Shown here: positions 54,468 to 59,415 of the stretch, in pieces
How the letters are laid out: each line of letters begins with the position of its first letter
How positions within the stretch are numbered: the first letter of the stretch is position 1
IMG/VR virus record: IMGVR_UViG_3300017917_003143
Location: 279,633-343,632 of that record
Length of the DNA stretch: 64,000 nt
Reading direction: 5' to 3' (one strand)
Source of the DNA: a virus
Notes under the pieces: generated by a model
What the model was told of the DNA's origin: nothing
What the model saw: the letters and a program-made list of their open reading frames with translations, nothing else
Databases searched by the model: none
Made by a program: the position numbers and the translations under genes

Positions 54468-55726
54468 TGAAAGACAAGAAGTATTTTCCTATTAAGACTG
54501 CCACAGCATGTCAACTTAAATGGAGCTGGAGTACAATTTTATTGTGGCAAGGCATAACAAGATCTTGCCACAGAACATCAGATTCAGAATTGACTGCAGA
54601 AAACTTCTTCGACTTTCATAATACCAAACTCAAACTGCAAGACAGACAGGCCATGCTCGATGGGCAATGGCCGGAAAAAAACTGTTCTTATTGTAAAAAT
54701 ATCGAAGCTCGTGGTGGTACAAGCGATCGTATACGCATGACAAGCATACCTGACCTTTACCCCAACGAGTTAGATGATGATCCTACAAAACTCATAGTCG
54801 ATCCTTCTATAGTTGAAGTATATTTCAACAATACTTGTAATCTTGGTTGCTTGTACTGTAATTTAGGATTTAGTTCGGTTAATGAAGACGAAAATCGGCG
54901 TTACGGTGATTTCCGTTACGGTGAAGTTCGACTGATCGCGAGGCCCAAAGGACAGTATAAAAATCTTGTTCCTTATTTTTGGAAATGGTTTGAAAAAGAT
55001 TTTCAGAAAGTCAAACGACTGCATATACTTGGCGGAGAACCGTTTTTACAAAAAGAGTTGTTTGTGCTGTTAGACAAGATCGAACAGTTACCCAATCCCA
55101 ACTGCGAACTAAATGTAGTCACAAACTTGATGTGCGACGAAAAAGTACTGGATGAGTTTATAGCCCGTTGCAAAAAACTATTAGTTGGTCGAGCACTCAA
55201 AAGAGTTGATATCACTTGTAGCATCGATTGCTGGGGCGCCGATCAAGAACATGTGCGTTGGGGGATCAAGATGGATCAATGGGAAAAAAACTTTCGCACC
55301 TTGCTACAATACAAATGGCTGAAAATCAATATCAACCAAACGATCACTGTGTTAACGATAAAAACCATGCCAGACCTCCTGAGAAAATTAAAGGAATGGC
55401 AAAAGATACATCCTGTTGGGCATTTCTTCAGCGAAGGTGAACCTCTAATCGAATGTTTAGAAATTGATGTCCTGGGCCATGATATTTTTAGCAAAGAGAT
55501 CAGTGAAATCTTAGATATCATGCCAGAAACCAATGACGAAGAAATCTTGACAAAAAAGTACATGGATAGTATACTGTCAAAACTCGTTGGAACTAAACCC
55601 GATCCGAGACGCATGAAAGATCTAAAGGCTTTCTTAGATGAAAAGGATCGTAGACGTGGCACTGACTGGAAACAAGTTTTCCCCTGGGTACAAGAAGAAT
55701 TTAAAAAATGTGGTATAGCCGAGTAG
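54467..55726 (+). CDS. Radical SAM enzyme (CxxxCxxC, extra N-terminal Cys motif)
   Basis: I use the ATG at 54467, overlapping the previous stop. The 419-residue protein has the iron-sulfur motif C124-N-L-G-C128-L-Y-C131 within FNNTCNLGCLYCNLG, a GGEPFLQKE SAM-binding segment and an upstream C73-S-Y-C76 pair that could bind an auxiliary cluster. The N-terminal SCHRTSDSELTAENFFDFHN with a RQAMLDGQWPEKNCSYCK block is typical of phage radical SAM proteins with a twitch-like region. The substrate is unknown. Its 3' end overlaps uvsY by 19 nt, so it is expressed with the recombination genes. Confidence 0.85.
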   Translation: MKDKKYFPIKTATACQLKWSWSTILLWQGITRSCHRTSDSELTAENFFDFHNTKLKLQDRQAMLDGQWPEKNCSYCKNIEARGGTSDRIRMTSIPDLYPNELDDDPTKLIVDPSIVEVYFNNTCNLGCLYCNLGFSSVNEDENRRYGDFRYGEVRLIARPKGQYKNLVPYFWKWFEKDFQKVKRLHILGGEPFLQKELFVLLDKIEQLPNPNCELNVVTNLMCDEKVLDEFIARCKKLLVGRALKRVDITCSIDCWGADQEHVRWGIKMDQWEKNFRTLLQYKWLKININQTITVLTIKTMPDLLRKLKEWQKIHPVGHFFSEGEPLIECLEIDVLGHDIFSKEISEILDIMPETNDEEILTKKYMDSILSKLVGTKPDPRRMKDLKAFLDEKDRRRGTDWKQVFPWVQEEFKKCGIAE

Positions 55727-56160
55727 TAGCGAACTTAGGATCGATTCCTGACTTTATAGCACACTATGAACGTGAGCTAGATGAAGCACGTCGGGAATGC
55801 CGCATCGGTGGAATGGTCGAACACAACATCAAAGAACTTCCGGGCATCACCGAACATAGATTCAATCAACTGCAAGAGATAGAAGCAGTACTCAACTATC
55901 TCAACATACAACTACGAAAAATCCGCCGCCGCCACTTTCAGAAGTATCTCGAAGCATATCAACGTGCCTTGACATCAAGAGATGCTGAAAAGTATGTAGA
56001 TGGTGAAGATGAAGTCATAGACTTTGAAACTATCATCAACGAAGTAGCCTTGTTGCGTAACAAGTGGCTGGGTATCATGAAAGGTCTGGATACCAAGCAG
56101 TGGCAGATGGGGCATATCGTGCGACTGCGTACTGCAGGCATGGAAGATATACAGGTATGA
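55708..56160 (+). CDS. uvsY: Recombination mediator, UvsY-like
   Basis: The 150-residue protein matches the layout of T4 UvsY (137 residues): an N-terminal helical region and a C-terminal NKWLGIMKGLDTKQWQMGHI followed by VRLRTAGMEDI, parallel to LQYWGILLDFCSGALDAIKS...IKHIQDMRAFEAG in T4. A basic QLRKIRRRHFQKYLEAYQRA segment would bind ssDNA. UvsY loads UvsX on gp32-coated DNA. The start lies inside the radical SAM gene, and the stop overlaps the next start (ATGA). Call supported by position after uvsX. Confidence 0.72.
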   Translation: MWYSRVVANLGSIPDFIAHYERELDEARRECRIGGMVEHNIKELPGITEHRFNQLQEIEAVLNYLNIQLRKIRRRHFQKYLEAYQRALTSRDAEKYVDGEDEVIDFETIINEVALLRNKWLGIMKGLDTKQWQMGHIVRLRTAGMEDIQV

Positions 56161-57967: not shown

Positions 57968-58732
57968 ATGAACAAAATCGTATTGGTTACCGGGGGATTT
58001 GACCCTGTACATTCTGGACACATCGCGTATTTCAAAGCCGCACGAGCTCTCGGCGACACTCTAATCGTTGGATTAAATTCTGACGAATGGCTCGAGCGTA
58101 AAAAAGGACGTGCATTCATGCCATGGAATGAGCGTCTTTGCGTGATCAATAATCTATCCATGGTCGATGAAGTCTACACGTTTGATGATGAAGACGGATC
58201 AGCCCGACATTTTATACAACAGGTGCGGGCACACTATCCCATGGCTGAGCTGATATTTGCCAATGGTGGCGATCGCACAGACAAAAACATTCCTGAAATG
58301 GATGTTGTTGACCCCAATCTAAAATTTGTGTTTGGTGTGGGCGGATTCAACAAGGCCAACTCCAGTAGCTGGATACTGGAAGAATGGCGAGCACCAAAGA
58401 CAGAAAGACCTTGGGGGTATTATCGTGTGCTACATGAACCTAACAAAAATGTAAAACTAAAAGAGCTCACGGTCGAACCTGGCAAAACTCTCAGCATGCA
58501 ACGCCATGCTGATCGAGGAGAGCTTTGGTTTGTCAGCGAAGGCGAAGCTACGCTGTACACGATCAACCGAAAATCTGACGCAGAGCTACACGGTCGATAC
58601 ACACGCAATCAAATGATCGTAATCAATCGTCAAGAGTGGCATCAGCTGGCCAACGAAGGCACAGAACCTCTCAAAGTCATCGAAATACAATACGGTGATC
58701 GATGTGAGGAAAATGACATAGAACGACAATGA
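57968..58732 (+). CDS. Cytidylyltransferase-cupin fusion (sugar nucleotide biosynthesis)
   Basis: The 254-residue protein joins two domains. Residues 1-130 form a nucleotidyltransferase with the HxGH motif (GGFDPVHSGH, H15 and H18), as in RfaE, TagD and related cytidylyltransferases. Residues 145-250 form a cupin of the mannose-6-phosphate isomerase type II kind, with QRHADRGELWFV (H180, E185), EWHQLAN and PLKVIEIQYGDRCEENDIER, its end signature. The start is set by the late box. It could make or balance a sugar precursor such as a CDP- or GDP-activated sugar for the transferases around it. Confidence 0.85.
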   Translation: MNKIVLVTGGFDPVHSGHIAYFKAARALGDTLIVGLNSDEWLERKKGRAFMPWNERLCVINNLSMVDEVYTFDDEDGSARHFIQQVRAHYPMAELIFANGGDRTDKNIPEMDVVDPNLKFVFGVGGFNKANSSSWILEEWRAPKTERPWGYYRVLHEPNKNVKLKELTVEPGKTLSMQRHADRGELWFVSEGEATLYTINRKSDAELHGRYTRNQMIVINRQEWHQLANEGTEPLKVIEIQYGDRCEENDIERQ

Positions 58733-59415
58733 ATGACATTATTCCTATCTTTGTAGGATATGATCCGCGAGAAGCTATAGCCTTTCACACTTGTGTGAAC
58801 TCAATCATACGTCATGCTACACAACCAGTGGCCATACATCCAGTAGCTCTCAATCTGTTTAAAGACTACAATGAGACACACACTGACGGTAGCAATCATT
58901 TTATCTACACGCGATTCCTTGTGCCGCACTTGATGGGTTGGAAAGGTTGGGCTATATTCATTGACGGTGACATGATCTTGAGAGATGATATCACCAAACT
59001 CTGGAATCTACGTGAGACAGACAAAGATGTCATGGTAATCAAACACGATTACAAAACCCGTATGCCTGTAAAATACTTAGGAGCAAAGAATGAAGACTAT
59101 CCTAGAAAAAATTGGAGTAGTGTTATTTTGTGGAATTGTAGTAGCTTTCCTAACAGGAAACTTACCCCTGAGTTCGTCCAACAATCCACGGGTAGTTTCC
59201 TCCACCGTTTCTCGTGGTTAAACGATGAACGAATCGGTGAGCTACCACCCGAGTGGAATTGGTTACCCGATGAATACGGTGTCAATCCTGATGCCAAGCT
59301 CTTGCACTATACTCTAGGTACGCCCTGCTTCCATGAATTTGCCGACACACCACAAAGTGAAGAATGGCATAGAGAACGCATACTAACAGAATACTGCCAA
59401 CAAAGGAACATATAA
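58729..59415 (+). CDS. Glycosyltransferase, GT8-like
   Basis: The 228-residue enzyme has GT-A features: IIPIFVGYDPREAIAFHTCV at the start, a D79-G-D81 metal and nucleotide-sugar motif in WAIFIDGDMILRDDI, and a C-terminal KLLHYTLGTPCFHEFAD, which supplies the usual H-x-x-G region. It overlaps the preceding gene by 4 nt. It probably transfers a hexose from a UDP or GDP donor. A similar domain is frequent in environmental T4-like phages. Confidence 0.8.
   Translation: MNDIIPIFVGYDPREAIAFHTCVNSIIRHATQPVAIHPVALNLFKDYNETHTDGSNHFIYTRFLVPHLMGWKGWAIFIDGDMILRDDITKLWNLRETDKDVMVIKHDYKTRMPVKYLGAKNEDYPRKNWSSVILWNCSSFPNRKLTPEFVQQSTGSFLHRFSWLNDERIGELPPEWNWLPDEYGVNPDAKLLHYTLGTPCFHEFADTPQSEEWHRERILTEYCQQRNI

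What the first reader, a model, noticed from the sequence alone, without database searches (positions are those of the whole stretch)
57968..58732. Cytidylyltransferase fused to a mannose-6-phosphate isomerase-type cupin
HxGH nucleotidyltransferases and type II PMI cupins normally occur in different proteins (the cupin is usually fused to a GDP-mannose pyrophosphorylase of another fold). Here a TagD/RfaE-type domain replaces that partner. The fused enzyme may make an unusual activated sugar.
Basis: partly seen in the sequence, partly recalled or inferred. Interest (0 to 1): 0.5.

Follow-up and report, generated by a model that had tools for sequence, protein, structure and literature searches.

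The report
Fused sugar-activating enzyme in giant phage
A giant virus of bacteria carries a two-part enzyme, also found in some of the ocean's commonest bacteria, that probably makes the activated sugar GDP-mannose with a catalytic half unrelated to the textbook enzyme.

Summary
Window 57968-58732 (+) encodes 254 aa: an HxGH nucleotidyltransferase (NTase) followed by a type II phosphomannose isomerase (PMI) cupin. The window is the end of a 343,632-base virus record. The fusion is not rare: all 80 viral loci kept carry both halves, and 48 of 53 genomes of a SAR11 family carry it, as do many SAR86 genomes. No curated equivalog model fits. Best reading: an unusual enzyme for an ordinary sugar. 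In some bacteria the NTase is unfused and clusters with phosphomannomutase, PMI cupin and GDP-mannose dehydratase (Gmd), where it fills the missing step, mannose-1-phosphate to GDP-mannose. Of 41 Gmd-bearing genomes with the NTase (among 63 chosen for it), 2 have the canonical guanylyltransferase. In a sample of 190 from one class, it is in 68 of 77 Gmd+ genomes without the NTase and 0 of 6 with it. Type I PMI is in 2 of 63. I propose a ManC/AlgA-like PMI/GDP-mannose pyrophosphorylase whose pyrophosphorylase half was replaced by a non-homologous HxGH domain. Nucleotide and sugar are inferred, not assayed.

The parts
57968..58732 (+). Fused NTase-cupin gene, 254 aa (upstream in-frame starts GTG 57947 and ATG 57962 possible)
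57974..58387 (+). N-terminal HxGH nucleotidyltransferase domain (residues 1-138)
   Evidence: PF01467; alignment A3; 1coz_A Z 15.0, 5xf2_B Z 14.8
58010..58021 (+). HSGH catalytic motif (residues 13-16)
   Evidence: 81 of 81 identical
58262..58297 (+). Subfamily signature NGGDRxxxNxPE (residues 97-108)
   Evidence: N97 G98 G99 D100 R101 N105 P107 E108 identical in 81 of 81 viral copies; N97-R101, N105 and E108 invariant over the 21 rows of A3
58358..58372 (+). NSSSW motif (residues 129-133), at the place of the STTK-type motif of other HxGH NTases (placement recalled)
58400..58726 (+). C-terminal type II PMI cupin (residues 143-251)
   Evidence: PF01050 78.7 bits; 7zvy_B Z 16.6
58499..58522 (+). 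Cupin motif QxHxxRxE (residues 176-183), likely metal/substrate site (role recalled)
   Evidence: Q176, H178, R181, E183 identical in 81 of 81 and in the 14 rows of A5
58640..58642 (+). Second cupin-motif histidine H223
   Evidence: 81 of 81
58729..59415 (+). Overlapping downstream gene, GT8-type glycosyltransferase
   Evidence: PF01501 29.4 bits
60067..60822 (+). GT25-type glycosyltransferase in the same glycan island
   Evidence: PF01755 66.5 bits
57169..57930 (+). Upstream SAM methyltransferase of the same island
   Evidence: PF08241
53166..54224 (+). UvsX recombinase: phage core gene upstream of the island, clustered in 54 of 81 fusion loci

Best explanation
The protein is a bifunctional enzyme of GDP-mannose synthesis that works like ManC/AlgA (type II PMI/GDP-mannose pyrophosphorylase) but with an unrelated pyrophosphorylase half. 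The cupin interconverts fructose-6-phosphate and mannose-6-phosphate (inferred from family, fold and conserved site). A separate phosphomannomutase, presumably the host's, makes mannose-1-phosphate (inferred). The HxGH domain then joins mannose-1-phosphate to GMP from GTP, releasing pyrophosphate (inferred from gene clusters and from the absence of the canonical enzyme). In the phage the GDP-mannose would feed the adjacent glycosyltransferases that remodel the host surface or the virion (inferred from neighbourhood). Shown here: the fusion, its conservation, its spread, the pathway clusters in bacterial relatives and the complementary distribution with canonical ManC. Not shown: activity, nucleotide or sugar specificity.
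For: (1) Clusters. In L136 (Elusimicrobium MAG) consecutive genes are phosphomannomutase PF03332 (98.6 bits), NTase, PMI cupin PF01050 (106.8 bits), a glycosyltransferase-like ORF (by eye), Gmd (557.7 bits) and a gene of the SDR cluster that resembles GDP-fucose synthase. Phosphomannomutase lies directly upstream of the NTase in 10 of 23 standalone loci (by clustering; Pfam-checked in L150, L154, L163); in L154 and L163 it is itself fused to a PMI cupin. Gmd is within 13 of 23 standalone loci (by clustering); in L150, the one checked, Gmd scores 558 bits (cut-off 415) and is followed by a GDP-fucose-synthase hit of 401.8 bits (under its cut-off of 500). Fused or split pairs beside Gmd: L131, L133, L135 (near-copy of L133), L136, L146. 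(2) Displacement. Among 63 bacterial genomes chosen for holding the NTase, Gmd at >=360 bits is in 41 and the pyrophosphorylase part of TIGR01479 at over 26 bits in 2, both among the 41. Of 39 fusion hosts, 20 have Gmd and 0 have canonical GMP. (3) Control, 190 genomes of the class of a SAR11 genome: canonical GMP in 68 of 77 Gmd+ NTase- genomes, 0 of 6 Gmd+ NTase+ (Fisher p 1.3e-5); all 10 NTase+ genomes have a PMI cupin without the GMP part, against 10 of 180 others. (4) Type I PMI in 2 of 63; one of them, G081, has no TIGR01479 match at all, so no cupin was found there. (5) Phage contigs L030 and L070 carry Gmd near the fusion (411 bits, cut-off 415; and 243 bits, partial at the contig end). 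(6) Archaeal single-domain PMIs have the highest Z for the cupin, tied with CapF.
Against: No assay exists, and I recall no HxGH enzyme known to make GDP-sugars. 19 of 39 fusion-bearing host genomes show no Gmd at 360 bits. Truly fused genes have Gmd within 6 kb in only 3 of 54 fusion-cluster loci (L131, L133, L135), and in 23 SAR11 loci the gene sits beside polA and an MFS transporter, not in a sugar cluster. The window's virus has no Gmd (best 45 bits), and a home-made model of the bacterial phosphomannomutase finds none in the window. 9 of 77 Gmd+ NTase- genomes also lack TIGR01479 GMP, so absence alone proves little. Seven NTase-bearing genomes have 18-25-bit hits in the GMP part, which I took as generic NTP transferases. 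A eukaryote/archaeal-type GMP would score poorly with TIGR01479 and was not tested. G074 and G092 have both NTase and canonical GMP; G096 shows neither cupin nor type I PMI. The control is not wholly independent: its centre G017 was itself chosen for the NTase (without it 0 of 5), and G086 and G089 are in both sets. Foldseek ranks CapF first and the best PMI 20th. Genomes are MAGs/SAGs, often incomplete, and related, so the p-values ignore kinship.
Confidence: 0.72

Rival explanations
1. ADP- (or GDP-)heptose enzyme: the HxGH half is an HldE/HldC-like heptose-1-phosphate nucleotidyltransferase and the cupin isomerises sedoheptulose-7-phosphate in place of GmhA.
For: Closest NCBIfam model by score is TIGR02199, the HldE adenylyltransferase domain (74.6 bits); HldC 5xf2_B Z 14.8. 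Some phage copies are annotated as bifunctional heptose kinase/adenyltransferase.
Against: Far under the TIGR02199 cut-off of 181.5. The heptose kinase domain is present (>=190 bits) in 8 of 39 fusion-bearing hosts and GmhA (>=120 bits) in 11 of 39, so GmhA is not simply replaced. The PMM, Gmd and Fcl neighbours have no place in this pathway.
Confidence: 0.1
2. An NDP-mannose other than GDP-mannose, or GDP linked to another sugar-1-phosphate, feeding a Gmd paralogue and a rarer deoxy or amino sugar.
For: Base specificity cannot be read from the sequence. L131 has an RfbH-like aminotransferase beside the fusion (258.9 bits, cut-off 423). The virus has its own SDR and DegT-type genes elsewhere (L176).
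Against: Gmd in 35 of 64 records passes the curated equivalog cut-off for GDP-mannose 4,6-dehydratase, and genes resembling GDP-fucose synthase follow in L133 and L150 (494.6 and 401.8 bits, cut-off 500).
Confidence: 0.12
3. TagD-like CDP-polyol synthesis (glycerol-3-phosphate cytidylyltransferase) with the cupin as an unrelated sugar-binding or regulatory domain.
For: 1coz_A is among the closest HxGH structures (Z 15.0, tied with others); two listed records annotate the phage NTase as glycerol-3-phosphate cytidylyltransferase (H3, H4).
Against: 43.1 bits against a cut-off of 165.4. The PMI cupin is found with the NTase fused, split downstream (L136), split upstream (L146) or fused to PMM upstream (L154, L163), which fits a pathway link rather than a fortuitous domain.
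Confidence: 0.04

Closest known systems
Bifunctional type II PMI/GDP-mannose pyrophosphorylase (ManC/AlgA, TIGR01479)
   Same: C-terminal PMI cupin (profile positions 358-460 matched); predicted product and pathway place; two steps on one chain flanking phosphomannomutase
   Different: The N-terminal pyrophosphorylase domain is absent and replaced by an HxGH domain; 69.9 bits against a cut-off of 372.95
HldE C-terminal domain / HldC heptose-1-phosphate nucleotidyltransferase (TIGR02199)
   Same: HxGH fold, closest sequence model
   Different: 74.6 bits against 181.5; NGGDRxxxNxPE and NSSSW signatures; fused to a cupin; heptose kinase found in 8 of 39 fusion-bearing hosts
TagD glycerol-3-phosphate cytidylyltransferase (1coz)
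   Same: Fold, Z 15.0 over 125 residues at 2.5 A
   Different: 43.1 bits against 165.4; different genome context
Standalone NGGDR NTases of cyanophages (S-SSM7, S-SCSM2R, P-TIM68)
   Same: About 50-54% identity over the NTase half, same signature
   Different: No fused cupin; lie between the DNA polymerase and UvsX/RecA genes
Monofunctional cyanophage type II MPI of S-SCSM1 (PMC9602691, passages read)
   Same: PMI cupin in a T4-like phage that also has Gmd and GDP-fucose synthase
   Different: Cupin only; the passages describe no NTase half

Membership tests
Bifunctional PMI/GMP (TIGR01479) | N-terminal NTP_transferase-type GMP domain | tested here: not met
   The match covers profile positions 358-460 of 467 only (358-461)
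Bifunctional PMI/GMP (TIGR01479) | C-terminal PMI cupin | tested here: met
   PF01050 78.7 bits over a 23.6 cut-off
Bifunctional PMI/GMP (TIGR01479) | Curated whole-protein cut-off | tested here: not met
   69.9 against 372.95 bits
Type II PMI cupin | Family profile, fold and conserved QxHxxRxE and second-motif His | tested here: met
   PF01050; conserved residues; PMIs top the Z list but tie with CapF, so the fold alone does not single out PMI
Type II PMI cupin | Fructose-6-P / mannose-6-P isomerase activity | not testable with these tools
   Needs an assay; the lack of type I PMI in 61 of 63 NTase-bearing genomes is indirect support
HxGH (CTP_transf_like) nucleotidyltransferase | PF01467 over cut-off and HxGH motif | tested here: met
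   52.5 bits over 21; HSGH 81 of 81
HldE/RfaE domain II | TIGR02199 cut-off | tested here: not met
   74.6 against 181.5
HldE/RfaE domain II | Heptose pathway present in host | tested here: not met
   Kinase in 8 of 39, GmhA in 11 of 39 fusion-bearing hosts, which are incomplete genomes
TagD | TIGR01518 cut-off | tested here: not met
   43.1 against 165.4
GDP-mannose pyrophosphorylase as an activity class | GTP + mannose-1-P to GDP-mannose | not testable with these tools
   Inferred from clusters and displacement

The most novel reading that the evidence does not exclude
The NGGDR HxGH family is a previously unrecognised, non-homologous class of mannose-1-phosphate guanylyltransferase. It has displaced the ManC-type enzyme in SAR11, SAR86, gut and host-associated Alphaproteobacteria and Elusimicrobia, and in a large group of phages. 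In phages and marine bacteria it is fused to the PMI cupin to make a second, independently assembled PMI/GDP-mannose pyrophosphorylase.
Probability: 0.68. Interest if true: 0.75.

Novelty: new variant of a known kind. Interest (0 to 1): 0.62.

Why it matters
If true, one step of a textbook nucleotide-sugar pathway has a second, unrelated solution carried by some of the commonest marine bacteria and by phages, and annotated in phage records as heptose or glycerol enzymes. It would give SAR11 and SAR86 a GDP-mannose source that homology searches miss, correct pathway-absence calls in metagenomes, and show phages carrying two steps of a host glycan precursor pathway in one gene. The claim is testable with one purified protein and two standard assays.

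Tried and rejected
Rarity of the fusion: rejected. Plasmid carriage: no match at E 1e-15 in PLSDB. Near DNA relatives among deposited phages: none for window 40000-64000. GmhA replacement by the cupin: rejected after GmhA and HldE kinase proved patchy and GmhA was found alongside the fusion. Gmd in the window's own virus: not found, only generic SDRs. Single origin of the fusion: the NTase tree (70 rows) needs 6 changes for the bacterial-fusion label, with long branches, so the number of fusion events is left open; 13 of 14 phage fusions form one set (99/95), L020 lies apart. Structure search: in the VIA listing the NTase half appears in few rows because the cupin fills the list; Foldseek puts CapF and cysteine dioxygenases above the PMIs; domain arrangement is unsure (pTM 0.60). 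First reading of a gene cluster as 'PMI cupin upstream of the NTase' was wrong in part: that cluster is phosphomannomutase, in some members fused to a PMI cupin. The phosphomannomutase and Gmd models were built from those same clusters, so their hits on the standalone loci hold by construction; only the loci named were checked against curated models, and whole genomes for Gmd. Gmd survey of deposited phages (85 records) did not show whether phages with the standalone NTase also have Gmd, since 25 records were not listed. A motif scan for canonical GMP in the fetched loci found none, but the motif was written from recall and is weak evidence. Papers: PMC9602691, PMC7029224, PMC7824862 and PMC7725333 were seen as passages; other papers in search listings only; the library holds open-access papers only.

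In one search, 57 of the 80 loci (matches across both halves) were clustered; 54 fall in the fusion cluster, and L136, L146 (split) and L138 (match lacks residues 1-29) do not. The 23 standalone loci are the rest of the 80; L139 and L140 hold identical NTases and look like phage contigs, and L140 was left out of the tree. In the class sample, NTase+ means 80 bits or more (10 genomes, one of them, G260, a 49-position fragment); ten further genomes with 49-60 bits were counted as NTase-. Canonical GMP+ there means best TIGR01479 E below 1e-55.

Full report
WHAT IS THERE. The ORF at 57968-58732 (+), 254 aa from the ATG at 57968, holds an N-terminal HxGH nucleotidyltransferase domain (PF01467, residues 5-100) and a C-terminal type II PMI cupin (PF01050, residues 143-251) in one frame (residue numbers count from K at 57974). 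The window is positions 279633-343632 of a 343,632-base virus record. Upstream lie a gp32-like single-strand binding protein and UvsX; around the gene are methyltransferases, a radical SAM protein and glycosyltransferases of families GT8 and GT25. The next gene overlaps its stop codon (58729). No deposited phage matches window 40000-64000 at near-DNA level.

IT IS COMMON. In bacterial genomes 218 stretches encode relatives; among the best 80, 57 match across both halves and 54 of those fall in one fusion ORF cluster; of the 57, 23 bear Pelagibacteraceae and 19 SAR86 titles. In the family of one Pelagibacteraceae (SAR11) genome, 48 of 53 genomes have the full-length fusion, one a cupin-side piece at a contig end, three no match and one only a weak other NTase. 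In 23 SAR11 loci it follows polA and precedes an MFS transporter and what looks like pckA (polA checked in L105 and MFS in L111; pckA read by eye). Some 'bacterial' hits (for example the FZLS01 and CAIJZG contigs) sit among phage-like genes and are probably misbinned phage (by eye). Deposited cyanophages carry the NTase half alone, at about 50-54% identity.

CONSERVATION. HSGH, NGGDR...N.PE and the cupin residues Q176, H178, R181, E183, H223 are identical in 81 of 81 viral copies, and most remain invariant in 43 fused sequences that include SAR11, SAR86 and a Kaiserbacteria MAG (S14 and P107 vary). The model (pLDDT 90.9, pTM 0.60) has its highest cupin Z with phosphomannose isomerases of Thermococcus (16.6 and 16.4), tied with CapF (15.8); its NTase half matches TagD, HldC and the Fom1 cytidylyltransferase domain (Z 14.8-15.0). 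Foldseek alone ranks CapF first and the best PMI 20th. No curated NCBIfam equivalog cut-off is reached.

WHICH REACTION. The strongest clue is where relatives sit. In host-associated Alphaproteobacteria and Elusimicrobia the NTase is a separate gene. In 10 of 23 standalone loci the gene directly upstream belongs to a phosphomannomutase cluster (eukaryotic-type, PF03332 in the three members checked), in L154 and L163 itself fused to a PMI cupin; 13 of 23 loci hold a Gmd-cluster gene. L136 shows the series phosphomannomutase, NTase, PMI cupin, glycosyltransferase-like ORF, Gmd, GDP-fucose-synthase-like gene, back to back. The NTase and cupin are linked in both gene orders and by fusion, which argues for a pathway link. 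In L136 every step from fructose-6-phosphate to GDP-fucose has a recognised gene except guanylyl transfer, and the NTase is the candidate in place.

DISPLACEMENT TEST. Over 63 bacterial genomes chosen for holding the NTase (plus the virus), Gmd at 360 bits or more is in 41 and the canonical pyrophosphorylase part of TIGR01479 in 2, G074 and G092, both Gmd+; seven more have 18-25-bit hits there that I took as generic NTP transferases. Among the 39 genomes with the fusion that were also used, Gmd is in 20 and canonical GMP in none. As a control, 190 genomes drawn from the class of the SAR11 genome G017 were searched three times: 10 have the NTase; canonical GMP is in 0 of those 10, in 68 of 77 Gmd+ NTase- genomes and in 0 of 6 Gmd+ NTase+ genomes (p 1.3e-5, kinship ignored; G017 is the centre and was itself chosen, without it 0 of 5). 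All 10 NTase+ genomes have a PMI cupin without the GMP part, against 10 of 180 others. Type I PMI occurs in 2 of 63; one of these, G081, shows no cupin match, while G096 shows neither. In each of the 40 records the best PF01050 match lies in an open frame of 254-275 aa, the size of the fusion.

WHAT SPEAKS AGAINST. Nineteen of the 39 fusion hosts show no Gmd at 360 bits. Only 3 of 54 fusion-cluster loci (L131, L133 and its near-copy L135) have Gmd within reach, and SAR11 has no sugar cluster around the gene. The virus record has no Gmd, and no phosphomannomutase of the bacterial cluster type was found in the window, so it would need the host's. Nine of 77 Gmd+ NTase- genomes also lack canonical GMP. 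Genomes are incomplete. A eukaryote-type GMP was not searched for. Only the chemistry of the superfamily, not the base or sugar, can be read from the sequence. The heptose rival is weakened by the patchy heptose kinase (8 of 39) and GmhA (11 of 39).

PHAGE ROLE. Two of 80 related viral loci carry Gmd within 6 kb (L030, 411 bits, just under the cut-off of 415; L070, 243 bits, partial at the contig end). A loose ORF cluster that includes the window's GT8-type gene is present near the fusion in 71 of 81 viral loci (not checked member by member). Published work reports phage glycan clusters with cupin isomerases and HIGH-superfamily NTases, described apart (PMC7824862, passages), rfaE and GT8 genes in pelagimyophages (PMC7029224, passages), and a cyanophage with a monofunctional PMI cupin plus Gmd and GDP-fucose synthase (PMC9602691, passages). 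I found no paper on this fusion or on an HxGH GDP-mannose pyrophosphorylase (searches; open-access library only).

VERDICT.

Noticed in passing
L175:1931-2392 (virus record 172430-172891): A second HxGH NTase in the same virus, of another subfamily (no NGGDR motif), beside a 641-aa ORF that looks like a radical SAM protein (by eye).
   Followed up: partly
L174:2399-3352 and L176:2595-4623 (virus record about 156400-157350 and 223094-225122): The virus carries a GalE-type epimerase (294 bits, cut-off 262) and an SDR plus DegT-type aminotransferase pair: a wider sugar toolbox.
   Followed up: partly
L154:4914-5999, L163:4848-5915: PMI cupin fused to a eukaryotic-type phosphomannomutase in host-associated Alphaproteobacteria, directly upstream of the NTase: a second unusual fusion in the same pathway.
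   Followed up: partly
L030:10685-11668 and L070:12209-12757: Phage contigs with the fusion also carry a GDP-mannose 4,6-dehydratase gene (L070 partial).
   Followed up: partly
L020:2983-3738: This viral fusion has a divergent N-terminal stretch and falls outside the other phage fusions in the tree; possible recombinant.
   Followed up: no
L100, L113, L117, L088: Contigs binned as Rhodobacteraceae or Bacteroidetes whose fusion lies among phage-like genes (by eye); probably misbinned phage.
   Followed up: no
window 55708-56160: A 150-aa ORF of unknown function whose cluster is near the fusion in 67 of 81 viral loci, more often than UvsX (54).
   Followed up: no
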